Below are positions 23,005 to 30,607 of a DNA stretch of 64,000 bases, piece by piece. Position numbers and translations under genes: made by a program. The stretch's first letter is position 1; each line of letters begins with the position of its first letter. The DNA is taken from NCBI RefSeq assembly GCF_022761115.1, contig NZ_JAKWJS010000001.1, positions 248,001 to 312,000 of the forward strand. Direction: 5' to 3'. Source of the DNA: Dyella sp. RRB7 (GTDB lineage Bacteria > Pseudomonadota > Gammaproteobacteria > Xanthomonadales > Rhodanobacteraceae). The notes beneath the pieces were generated by a model that was given only the letters and a program-made list of their open reading frames with translations, made no database searches and had not been told where the DNA came from.

Positions 23005-24144
23005 TTGATCATTCAACCCACCAGCCTCGCTGCCCTGGCCTGGGCCGGCGCTGCCTCAGGCAGTGCGGCGGAGAGCTGGCGCATCGGCACCGTGCTTGCC
23101 GCGCGTCCGTTGGGGATCAACCAGGACGGCCTGATGGTGCTGCAGATCGGCGCGCTCACGGTGGAAGCCGAGGCGCCCCGCAGCCAGCTGCCGTCGCAAT
23201 TTCAGGTGCGCGTGCTCAGCCTGGGCGCCGAGCCGTTGCTCGAAGTGATCGGCGCGAGCATGCCCGAGCCCGCCATGCAGGTGGCGCTGCGCGAGCGCCT
23301 GCCGCAGCAGAACGGCTATGGCCCGCTGCTGGCCACGCTCGACGCGCTGGCCCAACGCCCGGCCCTGCGCCAGCTGCCGGCCTACCTGCGTCCCGCGCTC
23401 GCCTTGCTGGAACATGGCGTGCGCACGCCCGCCGAGATCACCCGCGGCGAAGGGCTGGAGGAAGCGATCAACCGCAGCGGCCTGTTCCTCGAATCGCAAC
23501 TGGCGCAGGCCCAGGTCGACATGGCCGTGCTGAGCCAGGAAGACTGGAAAGGCGCGCTGCTGCGCCTGGCCAGCCTGCTCGACGACTACCTGCCCGCGCG
23601 CCGTGCGCCATCGGGCGATAGCGAAACACCGCCGCCGCTGCAGCAGCGCGGCCTGCAGGCACAGCCCCGGGTGCAGTTGCCGCCGGAACTGCTCAACGAC
23701 GATATCGACAGCTTGCTCGGCCGCCTGCACGGCGAAGTGCACGCCGCGCTGGCCCGCGTGGAGGTGGCGCAGCTGGAAGCCACCACCGTGCCGGCGTGGA
23801 TGATCGAGATCCCGCTGCAGGGCGAGAACGGACGCGACATCCTGCAACTTCAGTTGCAGCACAACGGCGGGGCCGAAGGCGGCTCGGCGTGGACGCTGGG
23901 CTTCGCGCTGGATCTGCCGGCGCTGGGCCCGATCCACGGCGAACTGCAACTGCGCGACCTGCGCCTGGCGGTTCGACTGTGGGCCGAGCGTGCCGACACC
24001 GTGCGGCGACTGGAGCAACAATTCTCCACTTTGCGAAACCAGCTTTCCGCCAGCGGCCTGATCCTCGACCAGCTGAGCTGCCAGCAGGGCCTGCCGCAAT
24101 CGGCCAGCCCGCATAGCGCCATCCTGCTGAAGACGATGGCATGA
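23005..24144 (+). CDS. FliK-like flagellar hook-length control family protein (second copy)
   Basis: 379 residues. The C-terminal ~110 residues match the FliK C-domain pattern (WMIEIPLQGENGRDILQLQLQHNG, then GPIHGELQLRDLRLAVRLWAERADTVRRL). Start: TTG at 23005 with AAGGAG six bases upstream; the ATG at 22951 lies inside the -10 promoter element and the ATG at 23001 is in another frame. The stop overlaps the next gene by four bases. A separate canonical fliK lies at 45.4 kb. The pairing with a FlhB-C-like gene mirrors Bacillus ylqG-ylqH. Role unproven. Confidence 0.8.
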   Translation: MIIQPTSLAALAWAGAASGSAAESWRIGTVLAARPLGINQDGLMVLQIGALTVEAEAPRSQLPSQFQVRVLSLGAEPLLEVIGASMPEPAMQVALRERLPQQNGYGPLLATLDALAQRPALRQLPAYLRPALALLEHGVRTPAEITRGEGLEEAINRSGLFLESQLAQAQVDMAVLSQEDWKGALLRLASLLDDYLPARRAPSGDSETPPPLQQRGLQAQPRVQLPPELLNDDIDSLLGRLHGEVHAALARVEVAQLEATTVPAWMIEIPLQGENGRDILQLQLQHNGGAEGGSAWTLGFALDLPALGPIHGELQLRDLRLAVRLWAERADTVRRLEQQFSTLRNQLSASGLILDQLSCQQGLPQSASPHSAILLKTMA

Positions 24145-24413
24145 GCACGCCACTGCCCCCCGCCCGCCGCCGCGTCACCCTGCGCCTGTCCGGTGGCCCC
24201 GCCGACGCGGCGCCGCCGGCCAGCCTGCCGCCCGAATCGCTGGAAACCCTGCTGGCACGTGCGCGTGCCCTGGGCATTCCACTGCATCACGACCCGCAGA
24301 TGGCCGCCCTGCTCGCTTCGCTGCGCCTGCGCCAGGATGTGCCCGCGACACTGTATGCGGCGGCAGCGGCGGTACTGGCCAGCATCTACGATGCGGCGGA
24401 AGACCAGCCATAA
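24141..24413 (+). CDS. FlhB C-terminal-domain homologue (FlhX/YlqH-like)
   Basis: 90 residues matching only the last part of FlhB: ALGIPLHHDPQMAALLASLRLRQDVPATLYAAAAAVLASIYDA lines up with the corresponding VPLVEAPPLARAL and EIPASLYVAVAQVLAYVF of the full flhB at 39.7 kb. The autocleavage motif NPTH, present in full FlhB, is absent, as are all transmembrane segments. Four-base overlap with the FliK-like gene implies the two products work together, perhaps as a substrate-specificity-switch accessory. Function not established. Confidence 0.82.
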   Translation: MSTPLPPARRRVTLRLSGGPADAAPPASLPPESLETLLARARALGIPLHHDPQMAALLASLRLRQDVPATLYAAAAAVLASIYDAAEDQP

Positions 24414-24658
24414 GCCTCGCAACCCCATCCGCCACCCGTAAATGGCGGTAAAGACGGCCGCGACCGCGACGCGTTGGGTACGATCCTTGCTTGGCCGTCC
24501 GAAAGAACTTCCCCGCTAGATGAATGCTCGCAGGGAGTATGCTTGCCCGCTTGAAGCGTCGACAGGGGACGCGGCTCCACCGCAACACACAACCGCCCAG
24601 TGGTATGAGGACTTTCCTGCAAGGGAATGCATCACCTCGTGCGGGAGTGCGGTTCGCC

Positions 24659-26848
24659 ATGGCACAGGTTTCCCCGGGGCCCGCGCTCCGGTACCGCGCC
24701 TTCATCAGCTACAGCCACCAGGACAAAGCCTGGGCCGACTGGCTGCACAAGGCGCTGGAAACCTATCGCCTCCCTTCGCGCCTGGTGGGCACGCGGACGG
24801 CTGCCGGCACGGTGCCGCGGCGTCTCGCGCCGATCTTCCGCGATCGTGATGAACTGGCCAGCGCCACCGACCTGGGACGCAAGGTCAACGAAGCGCTGGA
24901 GCAATCGGCAAACCTGATCGTGATCTGCTCGCCGCACTCGGCCGCCTCGCGCTGGGTCAACGAGGAAGTCCGGGCATTCAAACGGCTGGGACGCAGCGAG
25001 CGCGTGTTCTGCCTGGTCGTCGATGGCGAACCCAATGCCAGCGGGTTGCCTGGCCGCGAAGCCGAGGAATGCTTCGTCCCGGCATTACGCTATCGACCCG
25101 GTGCCGACCACGCATTGAGCGACCAAGCCACCGAACCCATCGCCGCCGACGCCCGGCCAGGCAAGGACGGCAAGACCAACGCGAAATTGAAACTGATCGC
25201 CGGCATGCTGGACCTTGCCTACGACAAGCTCAAGCAGCGCGAGCAACAACGACGCCAGCGGCGGATGGCGGCGATTACCGCCCTGGCCGTGCTGGTCACG
25301 GCCATCACCACCACGCTCGCCGTGATGGCCTTGCGCGCCCAGCGCATCGCCGAATACGAACGCAGCCAGGCCGAAGACCTGATCGGCTTCATGCTGGGCC
25401 ATCTGCATACCAAGCTGGAAGCCGCCAACCGGCTGGATATTCTCGATGACGTCGCCGGCAAGGCGATGGACTATTTCAGCGCGCTGGACGAGTCGGAGGT
25501 CACCGACGACTCGCTCGCGCAACGCGCCAAGGCGCTGCAGCTGATCGGCCGCGTGCGCGAAGAGCAAGGGAAACTGGACGACGCCACGCACGCCTTCAAC
25601 GATGCAAGTCAATTGATGAAACCCTTGGTGGCCCGCCAGCCACACAACGCCGCATGGCAGATCGCGCTCGCCGACAGCTACTCGTGGCTGGGCATGGTCG
25701 CCTGGGATCGCGGCGACATGCCATCGGCGCTCGGCCGGTTCCGCCTGGCCGCGCCGCTGGTCGAAGACGTCGTGCAGCGGCATCCGGAGAATCTGGACTG
25801 GTTCAAGCATCTGGGCTGGCTGCACAACAACCTTGGCCACGTGCTCGAAGCGGACGCGCAACTACCGGCGGCGCGCCAGGAGTACAAGGTCGTACTGGGC
25901 ATCTACCGGACGCTGGTGCGACGCGAACCCACCGACCGGCGCTATCGCTCGGAGCTTGGGCATGCCTATGGCAACCTGGCCGGCATCACCTATGCGCTGG
26001 GCGCGCTGACCGACGCACAAGACTACGCATCAAGGGCACTGGCGATTTGGCAGTCGCTGGCGCAACAGGACCCGACCGACATGTCGGTGCAAATGTACCT
26101 GGCCCGCGCCACCGCCATGCAGGGCAAGGTCTTGCAGGCCCGCGGCGATGCCGCTGCAGCCACCGCCGCGTTCGATGCCGCCCTCGGCATCGGCAAGCAT
26201 TTGCTCGCGGTCAATCCGACCAGCACGGAAAGCATCAGCGACATCGCCAGCTACAGCCGCTCGCTGGCTCACCAGCGCCGACTCGACGGCGATCCTTCGC
26301 ACGCGGAACAACTACTGCGCGAGGCCACCGCGTACTACACCCAGCTCGCGACCAGGGAGCCCGATGAACCGGCCTGGCAGACCAACCTGGCGGCCACCGA
26401 TATCGAGTCCGCACATCTTTCATGGCAAGCCGGCGACCTCGCCGCAGCCACGCGCGGCGCCGACGCCGCGCAGTCGCTGCTCGTCAGCGTGCTGAAGAAA
26501 CACGCCGACTATGCGCGCGCGCTGCCACTGCTGGCGGAAAGCCGTGTCCTGCTTGGGCAACTGCAGGCCGCCAGCGGCGACCTGTCGGCGGCGGCGCAAA
26601 GCTGGGGCGCCGCGCTGCAGGCGCTCCAATCCGGCACGGGATCGTCCCTGGATCCGCAGCCGGCCCTGCTGGAACCCCACGCGGAAGCACTGTGCCTGCT
26701 TGGCCGGACTGCCGAAGGCGAGCCCGTTGCGGCCACTCTCGCCGGACTCGGTGACCGCGATGCGCAATATCTGCGGACCATCGCCGCCACCCCATGCCAC
26801 GCATCGCCCGCCACCGCCCCAAGCCCAACGTCCACGCCATCGAACTGA
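24659..26848 (+). CDS. TIR-domain membrane protein with TPR repeats
   Basis: 729 residues. The TIR domain (residues ~12-150) opens YRAFISYSHQDKAWADWL; PIFRDRDELASATDLG is the BB-loop region; the putative catalytic Glu is in SRWVNEEVRAF (residues 97-105). A basic stretch and one transmembrane helix (AAITALAVLVTAITTTLAVMAL, ~203-225) precede ~450 residues of TPR-like helical repeats (for example AWQIALADSYSWLGMVAWDRGDMPSALGRFR). This layout puts the TIR domain inside and the TPRs outside the membrane. TIR domains can be NAD-cleaving enzymes or scaffolds; which applies here is open. In-frame upstream ATGs at 24605 and before are possible starts. Confidence 0.85.
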   Translation: MAQVSPGPALRYRAFISYSHQDKAWADWLHKALETYRLPSRLVGTRTAAGTVPRRLAPIFRDRDELASATDLGRKVNEALEQSANLIVICSPHSAASRWVNEEVRAFKRLGRSERVFCLVVDGEPNASGLPGREAEECFVPALRYRPGADHALSDQATEPIAADARPGKDGKTNAKLKLIAGMLDLAYDKLKQREQQRRQRRMAAITALAVLVTAITTTLAVMALRAQRIAEYERSQAEDLIGFMLGHLHTKLEAANRLDILDDVAGKAMDYFSALDESEVTDDSLAQRAKALQLIGRVREEQGKLDDATHAFNDASQLMKPLVARQPHNAAWQIALADSYSWLGMVAWDRGDMPSALGRFRLAAPLVEDVVQRHPENLDWFKHLGWLHNNLGHVLEADAQLPAARQEYKVVLGIYRTLVRREPTDRRYRSELGHAYGNLAGITYALGALTDAQDYASRALAIWQSLAQQDPTDMSVQMYLARATAMQGKVLQARGDAAAATAAFDAALGIGKHLLAVNPTSTESISDIASYSRSLAHQRRLDGDPSHAEQLLREATAYYTQLATREPDEPAWQTNLAATDIESAHLSWQAGDLAAATRGADAAQSLLVSVLKKHADYARALPLLAESRVLLGQLQAASGDLSAAAQSWGAALQALQSGTGSSLDPQPALLEPHAEALCLLGRTAEGEPVAATLAGLGDRDAQYLRTIAATPCHASPATAPSPTSTPSN

Positions 26849-26905
26849 CGCTGTCCCGAACGCGCCCATCCCGGACGCGCCTGCAACCACCGCGAGGAGA
26901 ACACC

Positions 26906-27277
26906 ATGGTCGGCGACACCACCCTGTCCATCACCGTTACCGTCAGCGGCAGCCCCGGCAATTATTCGGTTTCGGTATCGCCCAACAAATTGAATGTGGA
27001 TAGCGACGGCACCTTCGACATCGTATGGCAAGCCGGTAGCGGCGTCGCCTTTACTTTCGATGCCACCACGCCCATCGCGTTCACCGGCAACCACACGCCG
27101 CTGACCACGCCGACCTACGACTCAAGCAACAACACCGCCACCTGCACCGATACGGTGAGTGCCGATGGAACCTATCCCTATGTCATCAATCTCTGGGTGG
27201 GTGGCGTGAAGATCACTTGGCCGTCTGTCACGCATGTTGGCAATGGAGACCCTGAAATTCATAACCATCCCGATTGA
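26906..27277 (+). CDS. Small beta-rich protein, possible DP-EP family, partner of the TIR–TPR gene
   Basis: 123 residues with no signal peptide, rich in Thr/Ser/Val and strand-forming segments (TTLSITVTVSGSPGNYSVSVSP, GTFDIVWQAGSGVAFTF, GTYPYVINLWVGGVKITWPSV), suggesting an Ig-like sandwich. The end GNGDPEIHNHPD fits the short D-P-E signature of proteins annotated DP-EP (from memory, tentative). AGGAG lies seven bases before the ATG. It follows the TIR gene by 57 bp in the same direction. Confidence 0.7.
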   Translation: MVGDTTLSITVTVSGSPGNYSVSVSPNKLNVDSDGTFDIVWQAGSGVAFTFDATTPIAFTGNHTPLTTPTYDSSNNTATCTDTVSADGTYPYVINLWVGGVKITWPSVTHVGNGDPEIHNHPD

Positions 27278-27285
27278 GGGACATA

Positions 27286-27315
27286 TCGTCATTCCTGCGC
27301 AAGCAGGGATGACGA
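27286..27315. repeat. GTCAT-type palindromic element, single
   Basis: TCGTCATTCCTGC, loop GCAA, GCAGGGATGACGA: a 13-bp stem with one G-T pair, 8 bp after the small beta-rich gene. Same family as the elements at 22.03 and 45.2 kb. It may double as a transcript end. Confidence 0.8.
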
Positions 27316-27395
27316 ACTAAGAAAGCGCCTCGCGCTGATCCAGCCCTCGCAAGAATGACAAGCCAAGCGATCTCGCTTTCGAGCCTCCCGAAGCC

Positions 27396-27531
27396 TCAAG
27401 CCGCCTCACTCTCCAACGGCAATCGACACAACCGCCGCACATCCAGCAACGCCACAAACCCGCCCTGCCACGGCGGTACACACCATGCACCGGATCATCA
27501 TCGCGTGGCACACCACCCGGCAGCGGCATGG
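27396..27531 (-). pseudogene. Duplicated, frameshifted 3' fragment of cheW
   Basis: About 110 bp (27421-27531) nearly identical to the 3' end of the complete cheW at 28969-29100, including a 48-bp perfect match (27427-27474 versus 29000-29047). A two-base insertion near 27475 breaks the frame. The last codons differ (ending LESEAA, then a stop at 27396-27398, rather than LESETG), so it looks like an allelic remnant rather than a recent exact copy. The unrelated gene 27498-28775 lies between the two copies. Confidence 0.82.
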
Positions 27532-28775
27532 CCCGTGAGCGGCGCTTCGAGATACGCCTCCCAACGCCAGCCGGTCGCGATGCCGGCGTCATGGCTGCCG
27601 TCCGCGGCCACATGCACCAGCGGCTCGGCCGGCAACGTGTCGCCCGTGTAGAACAGGCGCGGTACGTCACTGCGCGGCTCGCCCTGACTCGACTGATCGC
27701 CGACGGCGCGATACCAACCGCCTTCGGTGACCTTGCTGCCCACGGTCAATGCGGGCAAGGTGGCCTCACGTTGGCGTCGCGCCGCTTCCAGCCTGGACAG
27801 GTCGGCGTCGTTGGTGGGGTAGTTGCACTCGAAGCGGTTGCCGCTGGTTGGGCGAAACCACATTTGCACCGAGCCCTTGAGGCTGGCCGGGGCTAGCACA
27901 TGCAGGGAATTCACCGAGCCACGTGTGGTGTAATTGCCCGCTGGGAACGGTTTCTCGGCATAGCTCAGAAACATCACATCGCGGTGTTGTCCGGCAGGTA
28001 CGATCAAGCGCCCATCGGGGAAGCTTTGCCCCGGCGCCAGTGACGTGCCGCCTAACCTGGGTAGACCAAACTCGTGCCCCGTATCGCCATCGGCTCCTAC
28101 CGCTACATAAGTAGCCCCCTCGCCCATCGGGTTGCGAATGCCCTCCCATTGCTCAGGGCTTTCCAACACAAGGTCCTCCTTGCCGCTATTGATCAACCGC
28201 AAGGTAACCTTGAGCTTGTCGCCTGCGGGCGCCACATAAGTCTCCGCTTCCAGCCACACCTGGCGGCTGCCTTGGGCACTCATGCCTTCGCGGTAATAGG
28301 ACAACAGCAAGTTACCAAACAGGTAGGTCAGCATCTTCGCATCGCGGCCGCCCACAATGGGGTCCGCACTGGCACTCTTGATTTCACCGGAGGCGCAGCG
28401 GGCACTGCCCCAGCCCATCGAATTACCGGGGTTCATGCCACCAAAGTCGGTCCCCTCGCAAATCACCTTGCGCGCCTGATCCCAACGGGGATCGGGCGCC
28501 GTTAGCGGCCCCTCCAGCACCCCCGCACCGGTGCCTTGCCCCAATGGGGTGGCTTTTTCGATGTCGGGCACGCCGCCCCGGTAGATCACCCGAAAACGTC
28601 CATCAGCGACGCTGACGCCGTGCTTGTAGTCGCCCCAGTCGCCGCTCAGTGCCACGGCGTCAACGGCTTGATGGTCGGGGCTGGCATGGGTCGTGGTGGT
28701 GGTTCCTAAAAAGCTGATAAATCCAACGAGGGCGAGATATTGCAGGCGGCGCACCTGTCGCAGCGGGCGGGTCAT
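27498..28775 (-). CDS. Exported protein of unknown function in the interrupted cheW 3' region
   Basis: 425 residues. Signal peptide with hydrophobic core LALVGFISFLG and probable cleavage after THA. The mature part is rich in Gly, Trp and Cys (CEGTDFGGMNPGNSMGWGSARC; KVTLRLINSGKEDLVLESPEQWEG; GWYRAVGD.. and GWRWEAYLEAP near the end), mostly beta-prone. No family recognised. The final ~10 codons (GHAAAGWCATR) are read from the duplicated cheW fragment in a different frame, so the native C terminus may be lost. Not related to chemotaxis by sequence; probably acquired. Confidence 0.7.
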   Translation of the reverse strand: MTRPLRQVRRLQYLALVGFISFLGTTTTTHASPDHQAVDAVALSGDWGDYKHGVSVADGRFRVIYRGGVPDIEKATPLGQGTGAGVLEGPLTAPDPRWDQARKVICEGTDFGGMNPGNSMGWGSARCASGEIKSASADPIVGGRDAKMLTYLFGNLLLSYYREGMSAQGSRQVWLEAETYVAPAGDKLKVTLRLINSGKEDLVLESPEQWEGIRNPMGEGATYVAVGADGDTGHEFGLPRLGGTSLAPGQSFPDGRLIVPAGQHRDVMFLSYAEKPFPAGNYTTRGSVNSLHVLAPASLKGSVQMWFRPTSGNRFECNYPTNDADLSRLEAARRQREATLPALTVGSKVTEGGWYRAVGDQSSQGEPRSDVPRLFYTGDTLPAEPLVHVAADGSHDAGIATGWRWEAYLEAPLTGHAAAGWCATR

Positions 28776-28968
28776 GGCTACTGCATCCTTTCTAACGCAA
28801 GCACGGCCCGTCGATCCCGACGGGCACAGATAGGCTGGACGCTAGTGGCGGTGCGAATACCCGTCTATCAGACAGCCCCCTAAAATGCGTACGCACCGTC
28901 CTTCATCAGGTGCGTGCCCTGAGAGCCTGTTCACCATCTCCCCGTAGCCCGCGTTGAGCCGCGGTGAG
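28776..28968. other. Non-coding gap between cheW and the exported-protein gene
   Basis: 193 bp. It holds a perfect hairpin at 28806-28825 (GCCCGTCG / CGACGGGC) in the leader of the exported-protein gene and a partly palindromic stretch near 28885 (GCGTACGC). No clear sigma28 or sigma54 promoter. It contains the right-hand boundary of the inserted segment. Confidence 0.5.
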
Positions 28969-29439
28969 TCAGCCCGTTTCGCTTTCCAGCGGCAGGCGGC
29001 ACAACCGCCGCACATCCAGCAACGCCACAAACCCGCCCTGCCACGGCAACACACCATGCACCGGATCATCATCGCGCGGCGCACCACCCGGCAGCGGCGG
29101 CGCCACCTCCGTCGTTTCCGGCGAGATCAGATCGCCCACCGCATCCACCCGCAGGCCCACCAGCTGGCTGCCATAAGCGAGCATCACCACGCGCACTTCG
29201 GCGTCGTCAGCCTCGAACGCGTCGGACAGGCCAAGCCGGCGGCGGCCATCGAGCACCGGCACGATGCGGCCACGCAGATGACGGATGCCAAGCAGGTCGG
29301 ATGCGGCACCGGGTACCGGCGTCAGCTCGCCATCACGGATGACTTCGCTCACCTGGGCCAATGGCGTGGCATACAGCTGCCCGCCGAGACGAAACGAAAG
29401 CCAGCGACCTTCGGTGGCGGGGGTGGTGGTATCGGTCAA
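28969..29439 (-). CDS. cheW: CheW-type coupling protein of the flagellar cluster
   Basis: 156 residues, one CheW domain: WLSFRLGGQLYATPLAQVSEVI, LLGIRHLRGRIVPVLDGRRRLGL, VGLRVDAVGDLISPET, and GFVALLDVRRLCRLPLES. Follows motD by 52 bp in the same direction, as cheW follows motCD in Pseudomonas and Xanthomonas, but parA and the ParC/ParP-type gene usually between them are absent here. Its 3' end is duplicated at 27.4 kb. Confidence 0.92.
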   Translation of the reverse strand: MTDTTTPATEGRWLSFRLGGQLYATPLAQVSEVIRDGELTPVPGAASDLLGIRHLRGRIVPVLDGRRRLGLSDAFEADDAEVRVVMLAYGSQLVGLRVDAVGDLISPETTEVAPPLPGGAPRDDDPVHGVLPWQGGFVALLDVRRLCRLPLESETG

Positions 29440-29491
29440 GACATCGACTCCCCGGCATGCGCCGGTGCTGCGGGCGGAACAAGGGCGAACA

Positions 29492-30607
29492 TCAGGGGCT
29501 GCGCTCCGGCGTGATGGGGCGCGGCGCGGTCACGGTGATGGTGCCGGAGGCGGCATGGGAAACCATCTCGTCCGCGGTGGACGCGGAGGCATCGCCCGTG
29601 TCGCGCGCCTCGGCCGGCGGCCCGGCGAGGATCACTTTGTTGACCGGTACATCGCTGCCGTTCGCCACGGGCGGCGTGGTGGTCACTGGCGCGCTGGCCG
29701 GTGCGGCGGCGGCAGGCGACGCCGGGGCATCGCCGCCCTCGGCGACCTGCCCCATGTGCTGGGCGTCGTTGTAGAAGCGCTTGGGCGCGTTTTCGTCACT
29801 CAGCACCACCACCAGCACGCGACGGTTGCGGTTGCGGCCGTCTTCGGTGGCGTTGTCGGCGCTGGGACGGTATTCGCTCCAGCCGACGATGCCCAGGCGC
29901 GACGGGTCGATGCCCTGCTCGGAGAACAACCGCGCCACGCTGGCGGCGCGCGCCGCGGACAGCTCCCAGTTGGAGGGATACAGCGCGGTGTTGATCGGCC
30001 GGTCGTCGGTATAGCCCTCCACCCGCACGGGGTTGCCGAAGGGCTTGAGGATGGCCGCGATCTGGTTGAGCACGCCATCGGCCGGCGGCGAAAGCTTGGC
30101 CACGCCGCTGGGAAACAGGATGTCGGTGCGCAGCTCGATTTCCAGCCAGGTAGTGGTCTTGCGCACGACCACCATCTTCTTGTCGATCAGCGGCTGCAAT
30201 GCTCGTTGCACTTCGTCGCGGATCAGCAACAGGTTCCGCTCCGACAGGGTCGGCTGCTCGGCCTGTCGCAGTTCGCGCAGATCCACCGCGCGCATCGGCG
30301 CCGGACGCTGCGGAATCGGCACGTTCACCGGCGTGGTGGCGGCGCCGGGCTGGCCGGCTGGCGCGGCTATCGCGGGGTCGACGTTGTGCGGCCGCGCGCG
30401 CGACTGCGGCATGGCCGCGATCACGTGGCTGGAACCGTTGAATGCCTCGATGATCGACTCGGACATCACGCGGTACTTGCCCTCGTTCACCACCGACACG
30501 GCGTACATCACCACGAAGAACGCGAGCAGCAACGTCATCAGGTCGGCATAGGGAATGGCCCACGCCTCGTGATTGAGATGATCCTCGTGGCGCTTGCGCC
30601 TTTTCAC
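29492..30607 (-). CDS. motD: Flagellar motor stator protein MotD
   Basis: 371 residues, MotB family. The N-terminal KRRKRHEDHLNHEAW leads to the single transmembrane/plug helix AWAIPYADLMTLLLAFFVVMYAV with the proton-channel Asp in YADLMTLL. The C-terminal OmpA-like peptidoglycan-binding domain shows VRVEGYTDDRPI, ELSAARAASVARLF and NRNRRVLVVVL. GTG start inside a GTGA overlap with motC; upstream in-frame ATGs lie inside motC and are rejected. A low-complexity Ala/Pro tail of ~90 residues follows the OmpA domain. Confidence 0.94.
   Translation of the reverse strand: MKRRKRHEDHLNHEAWAIPYADLMTLLLAFFVVMYAVSVVNEGKYRVMSESIIEAFNGSSHVIAAMPQSRARPHNVDPAIAAPAGQPGAATTPVNVPIPQRPAPMRAVDLRELRQAEQPTLSERNLLLIRDEVQRALQPLIDKKMVVVRKTTTWLEIELRTDILFPSGVAKLSPPADGVLNQIAAILKPFGNPVRVEGYTDDRPINTALYPSNWELSAARAASVARLFSEQGIDPSRLGIVGWSEYRPSADNATEDGRNRNRRVLVVVLSDENAPKRFYNDAQHMGQVAEGGDAPASPAAAAPASAPVTTTPPVANGSDVPVNKVILAGPPAEARDTGDASASTADEMVSHAASGTITVTAPRPITPERSP

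What the first reader, a model, noticed from the sequence alone, without database searches (positions are those of the whole stretch)
27396..29100. Gene captured at the 3' end of cheW with a duplicated, allelic 3' fragment
A complete cheW (28969-29439) is followed by an unrelated exported-protein gene and then by a second copy of the cheW 3' end (27396-27531): 48 bp perfectly identical, ~95% over ~110 bp, frameshifted, with different last codons. This is the footprint expected when a segment integrates at a gene's 3' end and brings its own replacement end, as integrative elements do at tRNA genes. Only ~1.5 kb and no integrase remain.
Basis: seen in the sequence. Interest (0 to 1): 0.75.

Follow-up and report, generated by a model that had tools for sequence, protein, structure and literature searches.

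The report
Two cheW gene ends in tandem
In a soil bacterium, two versions of the end of a chemotaxis gene were stitched together around a clipped gene that probably once protected against a rival's toxin; it looks like a scar of imperfect DNA exchange rather than of a self-inserting mobile element.

Summary
The repeat is real: the last 130 bp of cheW (28969-29098) recur at 27396-27527 (E 1e-45). A 48-bp block is identical; the terminal 39 bp differ at 10 bases, 7 of them synonymous, so the ends are alleles, not one copy and its decayed twin. Named relatives are Dyella. The gene between is the truncated relative of a putatively exported protein that, in three of seven relatives whose surroundings I read, sits directly behind a VgrG-like gene with a C-terminal metallopeptidase domain: probably a T6SS immunity gene. 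Here it is an orphan, without TssB or VgrG match in this genome. About 50-60 C-terminal residues are missing where the cheW fragment begins. The nearest tyrosine-integrase domain is ~196 kb away. The fragment reaches 53 bp upstream of the identical block while staying this genome's own type, which site-specific integration does not predict. No second cheW end was found in the intervals of 19 congeners. Best reading: an integrase-free join of two cheW haplotypes at a highly variable locus, like rhs C-terminal displacement or homology-facilitated illegitimate recombination. Which end is native is unresolved.

The parts
28969..29439 (-). cheW, complete; C-terminus ESETG*
   Evidence: Pfam CheW E 1.3e-27; matched in 19 of 19 congeners
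28969..29007 (-). terminal 39 bp of the intact cheW, end allele A; differs at 10 of 39 bases from the second copy
29000..29047 (-). 48-bp block identical to 27427-27474
28923..28961 (+). remnant (one end) of a dispersed, mostly ~266-bp element with ~35-bp terminal inverted repeats, MITE-like; the only match in this genome to the 31-base end pattern with at most 2 mismatches
27528..28775 (-). putatively exported protein gene, putative orphan T6SS immunity gene, truncated at its 3' end; the ORF goes on to 27498 inside the cheW fragment
   Evidence: homologues behind VgrG-metallopeptidase genes; alignment shows the missing C-terminus
27396..27527 (-). second cheW 3' end, end allele B (ESEAA*), frameshifted by 2 bp
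27427..27474 (-). 48-bp block identical to 29000-29047
24524..26848 (+). TIR-TPR protein gene, other variable content of the same cheW-fliK interval
   Evidence: Pfam TIR_2 1.5e-14, TPR_12 4e-9; no match in the stretches searched in 19 congeners
26906..27277 (+). 123-aa ORF of unknown function beside the fragment
   Evidence: no family over its cut-off

Best explanation
Two haplotypes of the region behind cheW were joined in tandem by recombination without an integrase. Haplotype A reads cheW (end ETG) - MITE-like remnant - immunity-type gene. Haplotype B reads cheW (end EAA) - the present downstream DNA. A piece of A entered a cell carrying B, or the reverse. It was anchored by homology in or upstream of cheW, and its other end, inside the immunity-type gene, was joined illegitimately to the other haplotype's cheW at about codon 116. 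This added DNA instead of replacing it. It left an intact cheW, a truncated immunity-type gene, and a silent cheW 3' end that has since gained a frameshift. Shown: the tandem ends, their allelic character, the missing C-terminus at the joint, no tyrosine integrase nearby. Inferred: the import, the joining mechanism, the role of the gene. Not known: which end is native. No genome with A or B alone was seen.
For: Allelic ends: 7 of 10 base differences synonymous. The fragment end places best on the stem of sister clade G010+G014, 9.35 lnL better than the best place outside that clade. At the 10 sites only G010 and G014 of 19 congeners have more fragment states (6:2, 7:2); the other 17 have more states of the intact end, some narrowly (5:4, 4:3). 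Upstream of the tip the copies are nearly identical: 2 base changes and one four-column indel cluster in 93 columns, against 10 of 39 in the tip (Fisher P 9e-5 with the indel left out). The ORF lacks 52 residues of the ASV21 homologue (itself cut by its contig end) and about 62 of the C11 one at the joint; the missing part has no convincing match in the window (best E 0.03). Variable locus: cheW to fliK spans 0.76-61.5 kb in the 18 of 20 genomes where both lie on one contig. No tyrosine integrase near. No repeat footprint in the intervals of 19 congeners.
Against: Only 39 bp carry the allelic signal. AU tests of the three best places for the fragment end outside the sister clade give 0.085, 0.046 and 0.062, so they are not clearly rejected; placement of the intact end is uninformative (0.54 lnL). 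With fixed branch lengths the fragment is the better native end in 2 of 6 model-tree pairs and the intact end in 4 of 6. At 5 of 7 synonymous differences the intact end has the codon preferred in seven neighbouring genes; at the two Glu codons the fragment has it. HFIR products generally lose recipient DNA, whereas here DNA is duplicated (PMC3240628, passages). Microhomology at the joint cannot be tested without a close untruncated homologue. DNA behind the fragment does not align with that behind cheW in G010 or G014, so no empty site was seen at base level.
Confidence: 0.6

Rival explanations
1. Site-specific integration of a small element at the 3' end of cheW, which supplied a new end and was later reduced to 1.5 kb with loss of its integrase.
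For: An intact gene, a displaced end and a 48-bp identical block at both ends; alternative ends.
Against: Nearest tyrosine-integrase domain ~196 kb away. The second copy continues 53 bp upstream of the block as this genome's own cheW type. The inner boundary falls inside a truncated gene. No second cheW end in the intervals of 19 congeners.
Confidence: 0.12
2. rhs-like C-terminal displacement: a circular DNA carrying a cheW piece, an alternative end and the immunity-type gene integrated by one RecA crossover, pushing the old end downstream.
For: The displaced tip keeps core sequence nearly identical to the intact gene, as reported for displaced rhs tips (PMC2935791, passages). Circularised linear DNA integrates by single crossover in E. 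coli (PMC3240628, abstract and passages).
Against: The donor's cheW would have to be nearly identical to the recipient's in the ~90 bp before the last 39 bp. No array of alternative cheW tips in congeners.
Confidence: 0.15
3. Plain tandem duplication of this genome's own cheW end, with the gene between native downstream, followed by drift of the silent copy.
For: Upstream of the tip the copies are nearly identical and the fragment is frameshifted.
Against: 10 of 39 differences in the tip against 2 changes and one indel cluster before it; 7 of 10 synonymous; fragment-specific states are shared with the sister species G010/G014.
Confidence: 0.08

Closest known systems
Displacement of T6SS effector genes and orphan immunity arrays in Vibrio cholerae (Kirchberger et al. 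2017, PMC5361080; passages and section 13 read)
   Same: An immunity gene without its effector; homology-facilitated illegitimate recombination proposed; an old 3' part pushed downstream of the insert
   Different: There the anchor lies upstream of the effector-immunity module inside a T6SS cluster. Here it is the chemotaxis gene cheW, in a genome without TssB or VgrG match, and the immunity-type gene is truncated
rhs C-terminal displacement (Jackson et al. 2009, PMC2935791; passages read)
   Same: Intact gene with one tip, a silent downstream fragment of the same gene with another tip and near-identical core
   Different: cheW is not a polymorphic toxin; its two tips differ in two residues only; no array of tips in congeners
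Genomic islands integrated in tRNA and tmRNA genes (Islander, PMC4383910; start of abstract seen in the search listing only)
   Same: Regenerated gene plus displaced fragment mark the ends
   Different: No tyrosine integrase near, no tRNA or tmRNA gene in the window, and the fragment reaches upstream of the identical core
VgrG2b metallopeptidase and its periplasmic immunity protein PA0261 of Pseudomonas aeruginosa (PMC6899460; passages read)
   Same: VgrG with a C-terminal HExxH metallopeptidase paired with a gene for an exported immunity protein
   Different: No PDB relative of the Dyella protein by sequence; kinship with PA0261 or with the VgrG2b peptidase was not compared directly

Membership tests
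Integrase-type element at a gene 3' end | integrase gene in or beside the segment | tested here: not met
   6 Phage_integrase matches in the genome, none in the window, nearest ~196 kb away on the contig; serine integrases not searched
Integrase-type element at a gene 3' end | identical direct repeat at both ends, gene end restored | tested here: met
   48-bp identical block, intact cheW
Integrase-type element at a gene 3' end | displaced fragment starts at the crossover core | tested here: not met
   host-type cheW sequence continues 53 bp upstream of the block
Integrase-type element at a gene 3' end | other strains with elements at the same site | tested here: not met
   no second cheW end in the cheW-fliK intervals of 19 congeners, two of them held as two contigs; no conspecific strain was available
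Homology-facilitated illegitimate recombination product | one homologous and one illegitimate joint | tested here: inconclusive
   non-homologous joint inside the gene between; homologous side inferred from the allelic pattern
Homology-facilitated illegitimate recombination product | 3-10 bp microhomology at the illegitimate joint | not testable with these tools
   nearest homologue is 59% identical as protein; the donor sequence past the joint is unknown
Homology-facilitated illegitimate recombination product | loss of recipient DNA of similar size | tested here: not met
   cheW sequence is duplicated at the joint, not lost; loss further on not excluded
rhs C-terminal displacement | silent fragment with core like the intact gene and a different tip | tested here: met
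rhs C-terminal displacement | Rhs or other polymorphic toxin gene with arrays of tips | tested here: not met
   the gene is cheW; no arrays
T6SS immunity protein | encoded directly behind an effector gene in relatives | tested here: inconclusive
   3 of 7 relatives read: behind VgrG-metallopeptidase in Dyella sp. C11, Dyella sp. ASV21 and G130. Not in G062 or G259, weak relatives, nor in G139 and G140, C-terminal-only matches. G459 (E 1.9e-4) was not read
T6SS immunity protein | export to the periplasm | tested here: inconclusive
   hydrophobic N-terminal stretch only; no signal-peptide predictor was run
T6SS immunity protein | binds and neutralises the effector | not testable with these tools
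   needs an experiment

The most novel reading that the evidence does not exclude
The 3' end of cheW in Dyella is a recurrent landing place for VgrG-metallopeptidase/immunity modules. They spread by homology in the flanking chemotaxis gene and swap its C-terminus on the way, an rhs-like displacement acting on a housekeeping gene and able to leave orphan immunity genes in strains without a T6SS. Two of the three Dyella genomes with this gene family carry it directly beside cheW.
Probability: 0.2. Interest if true: 0.55.

Novelty: new variant of a known kind. Interest (0 to 1): 0.36.

Why it matters
Orphan immunity genes are thought to be gained by recombination, but the joints are seldom visible (my judgement). 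Here both joints can be read in a short segment at an ordinary chromosomal gene. They show how an 'integrase footprint' could arise without an integrase, a trap for methods that call genomic islands from displaced gene fragments. It also marks the cheW-fliK interval of Dyella as a locus of very variable content.

Tried and rejected
Simple duplication with drift was set aside: the differences are clustered in the tip and mostly synonymous. No Rfam match in 24000-30000; folding of the spacer behind cheW is unremarkable, z -0.28. Pfam, NCBIfam and PADLOC gave no family for the protein between, nor did the PDB sequence search. The AlphaFold model from three sequences was useless (mean pLDDT 35), so no fold search was run. 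Polarity of the two ends was tried three ways (site states, placement, fixed-branch likelihood and codon use) and stays open; my notes that the fragment end is native were too strong, and note says so. The base-level empty site in G010/G014 could not be aligned. A search for papers on cheW as an island integration site held 18 papers, 8 listed, none to the point by title (listing only). I did not search print for this gene family by name.

Full report
What is there. The window lies at 248001-312000 of contig C1 of a 4.08-Mb genome. Two genomes of its genus, G017 and G011, correspond to the named records Dyella sp. ASV21 and Dyella sp. C11, so I call it Dyella. cheW (28969-29439, minus; Pfam CheW 1.3e-27) stands at the end of a chemotaxis/motor gene run. 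The names motA, motB, cheA, fliK, flhB-like and perM used here are recalled from sequence and come from no family search. Reading on from cheW: 39 bp of a dispersed element at 28923-28961, a gene for a putatively exported protein (ORF 27498-28775), a second cheW 3' end (27396-27527), a 123-aa ORF, a TIR-TPR gene, and the flhB-like and fliK-like genes.

The repeat. The two ends align over 132 columns with 16 differing columns. A 48-bp block is identical (27427-27474 and 29000-29047). Upstream of it lie 2 base changes and one four-column indel cluster; downstream, in the last 39 bp, 10 changes. Seven of the 10 are synonymous, unlikely for random change (P 0.0035, 0.0067 and 0.020 by three ways of counting). 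The intact gene encodes ...ESETG and the fragment ...ESEAA. Of 19 congeners 17 end in AA, one in AT and one in VA; none ends in TG. So the two tips look like alleles that diverged while functional, whereas the stretch before them is of one origin.

Relatives. In trees of the upstream 2.6 kb and of cheW, the genome is sister to G010+G014 (support 94/96 and 94/89, just under the tool's mark of 95). At the 10 differing sites G010 and G014 have more fragment states (6:2, 7:2); the other 17 of 19 congeners have more states of the intact end, two of them narrowly (5:4, 4:3). Placing the 39-bp tips on a fixed backbone puts the fragment tip on the G010+G014 stem, 9.35 lnL better than the best place outside that clade, though AU tests of the three best outside places give 0.085, 0.046 and 0.062. 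The intact tip is uninformative (0.54 lnL). Asking which tip fits better as this genome's native one gave mixed answers. With the cheW tree the fragment is better by 1.2 and 2.5 lnL under the two gamma models and worse by 3.7 under HKY. With the upstream tree the intact end is better by 2.4 to 9.8. At 5 of 7 synonymous differences the intact tip has the codon preferred in seven neighbouring genes, at the two Glu codons the fragment has it. I therefore leave the polarity open.

The gene between. Relatives are rare: 3 of 20 genomes of the genus, 5 of 233 of the family, 6 of 398 sampled from the order (G017 is not among them and was presumably not drawn) and only the own genome of 369 sampled from the class. 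In some searches only the best 4-7 first-look candidates per genome were scored, so weak relatives may be missed. A scan of one genome for each of 84,980 species with two peptide patterns gave two loci, both Dyella. In Dyella sp. C11 and sp. ASV21 the gene overlaps the end of a VgrG gene (VgrG-type Pfam domains) whose C-terminal domains are 34% identical to each other with a shared HEAGHLFSWPDEY motif. In G130, of another genus, a partial homologue follows a VgrG-like (23%) and metallopeptidase-like (36%) region. Against this, no VgrG or peptidase match lies in the stretches read around the weak relatives in G062 and G259 (the G259 relative itself was not found again there) or the C-terminal-only matches in G139 and G140. 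I read the protein as an immunity protein for a VgrG-borne metallopeptidase; this is inference. The window's copy lacks the C-terminus of both Dyella relatives, about 52 residues of ASV21 (whose own end is cut by its contig) and 62 of C11. This genome has no match to TssB (6 of 20 genomes have one) or to the VgrG family PF05954 (10 of 20 have a match), so the gene is an orphan. Its composition is only mildly unusual: GC 63.9% against 66.7% for the window, GC3 73.7% against 75.2% for cheW and 79.5-91.9% for six other genes, while the 123-aa ORF has 71.0%. dN/dS against ASV21 is about 0.28 (0.33/1.19); dS is near saturation, so this is rough.

The element remnant. The spacer behind the intact cheW holds one end of a repeat found elsewhere as pairs of ~35-bp inverted ends, mostly 235 or 280 bp apart from start to start. 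The 31-base end pattern with up to 2 mismatches occurs in 14 of 20 genomes, 39 times in G018, and once in this genome, in this segment; a 23-base partial match lies on C18. That fits DNA from a relative rich in the element, but does not prove it.

The locus. The interval from cheW to the fliK-like gene ranges from 0.76 kb (G014) to 61.5 kb (G001) in the 18 of 20 genomes where both lie on one contig; in G004 and G008 they lie on two. A perM-like gene is found behind cheW in 17 of 19 congeners and is missing in G010, G014 and this genome. In 16 of the 17 the match begins 79-288 bp after cheW; in G011 it begins 6.0 kb after it, behind the VgrG/immunity-type pair. So two of the three Dyella genomes with this gene family carry it directly beside cheW, but in opposite orientation and only 23-26% identical; the third, G017, has it on a 3.8-kb contig of unknown place, and its own cheW is followed by perM. 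None of the 19 congeners shows a second cheW 3' end in its own interval: the longest match is 57 bp at 68% identity and the best E-value 2.8e-4, against 122 bp and 1e-45 here.

Mechanism. Site-specific integration predicts an integrase or its trace, element sequence upstream of the core in the displaced copy, and a clean boundary. I find the nearest tyrosine-integrase domain ~196 kb away (serine integrases not searched), host-type cheW upstream of the core, and a boundary inside a truncated gene. Joining two haplotypes explains all three: homology on the cheW side and illegitimate joining on the other. Neither haplotype was seen alone in any genome. Kirchberger et al. (PMC5361080, section 13) propose homology-facilitated illegitimate recombination for orphan immunity arrays. 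Jackson et al. (PMC2935791, passages) propose circular intermediates for displaced rhs tips. PMC3240628 (abstract and passages) says that such illegitimate products generally lose recipient DNA, which is not seen here. I prefer the haplotype join, with the circular route as the nearest rival.

Verdict. The comparison with integrative elements is not supported, and the direction of replacement is undecided. It is an instructive but local scar, of moderate interest.

Noticed in passing
28923-28961; L056-L071: A dispersed MITE-like element of Dyella, mostly about 266 bp (a longer form about 311 bp), ~35-bp terminal inverted repeats, ends often preceded by CTNA (seen, not counted); 39 end matches with at most 2 mismatches in G018 and none in 6 of 20 genomes. 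L064 and L066 look like short hairpin forms.
   Followed up: partly
24524-26848: TIR-TPR protein gene with a 123-aa ORF behind it, in the same variable interval and without a match in the stretches searched in 19 congeners; possible defence gene.
   Followed up: no
L034-L052, L072-L087: The cheW-fliK interval of Dyella varies from 0.76 to 61.5 kb; the contents of the long forms (G001, G006, G009, G012) were not annotated.
   Followed up: partly
L089:4636-9389; L088:4-3830; L100:3860-7949: VgrG-type proteins with a C-terminal HExxH domain for which Pfam gave no family at E 0.1, paired with putatively exported proteins; a 2019 review (PMC6653060, passages) reported no specialised VgrGs in the Xanthomonadales genomes it analysed.
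   Followed up: partly
L093, L094 (G139, G140): Proteins that match only the C-terminal part of the family, overlapping the part missing in the window; perhaps a separate domain.
   Followed up: no
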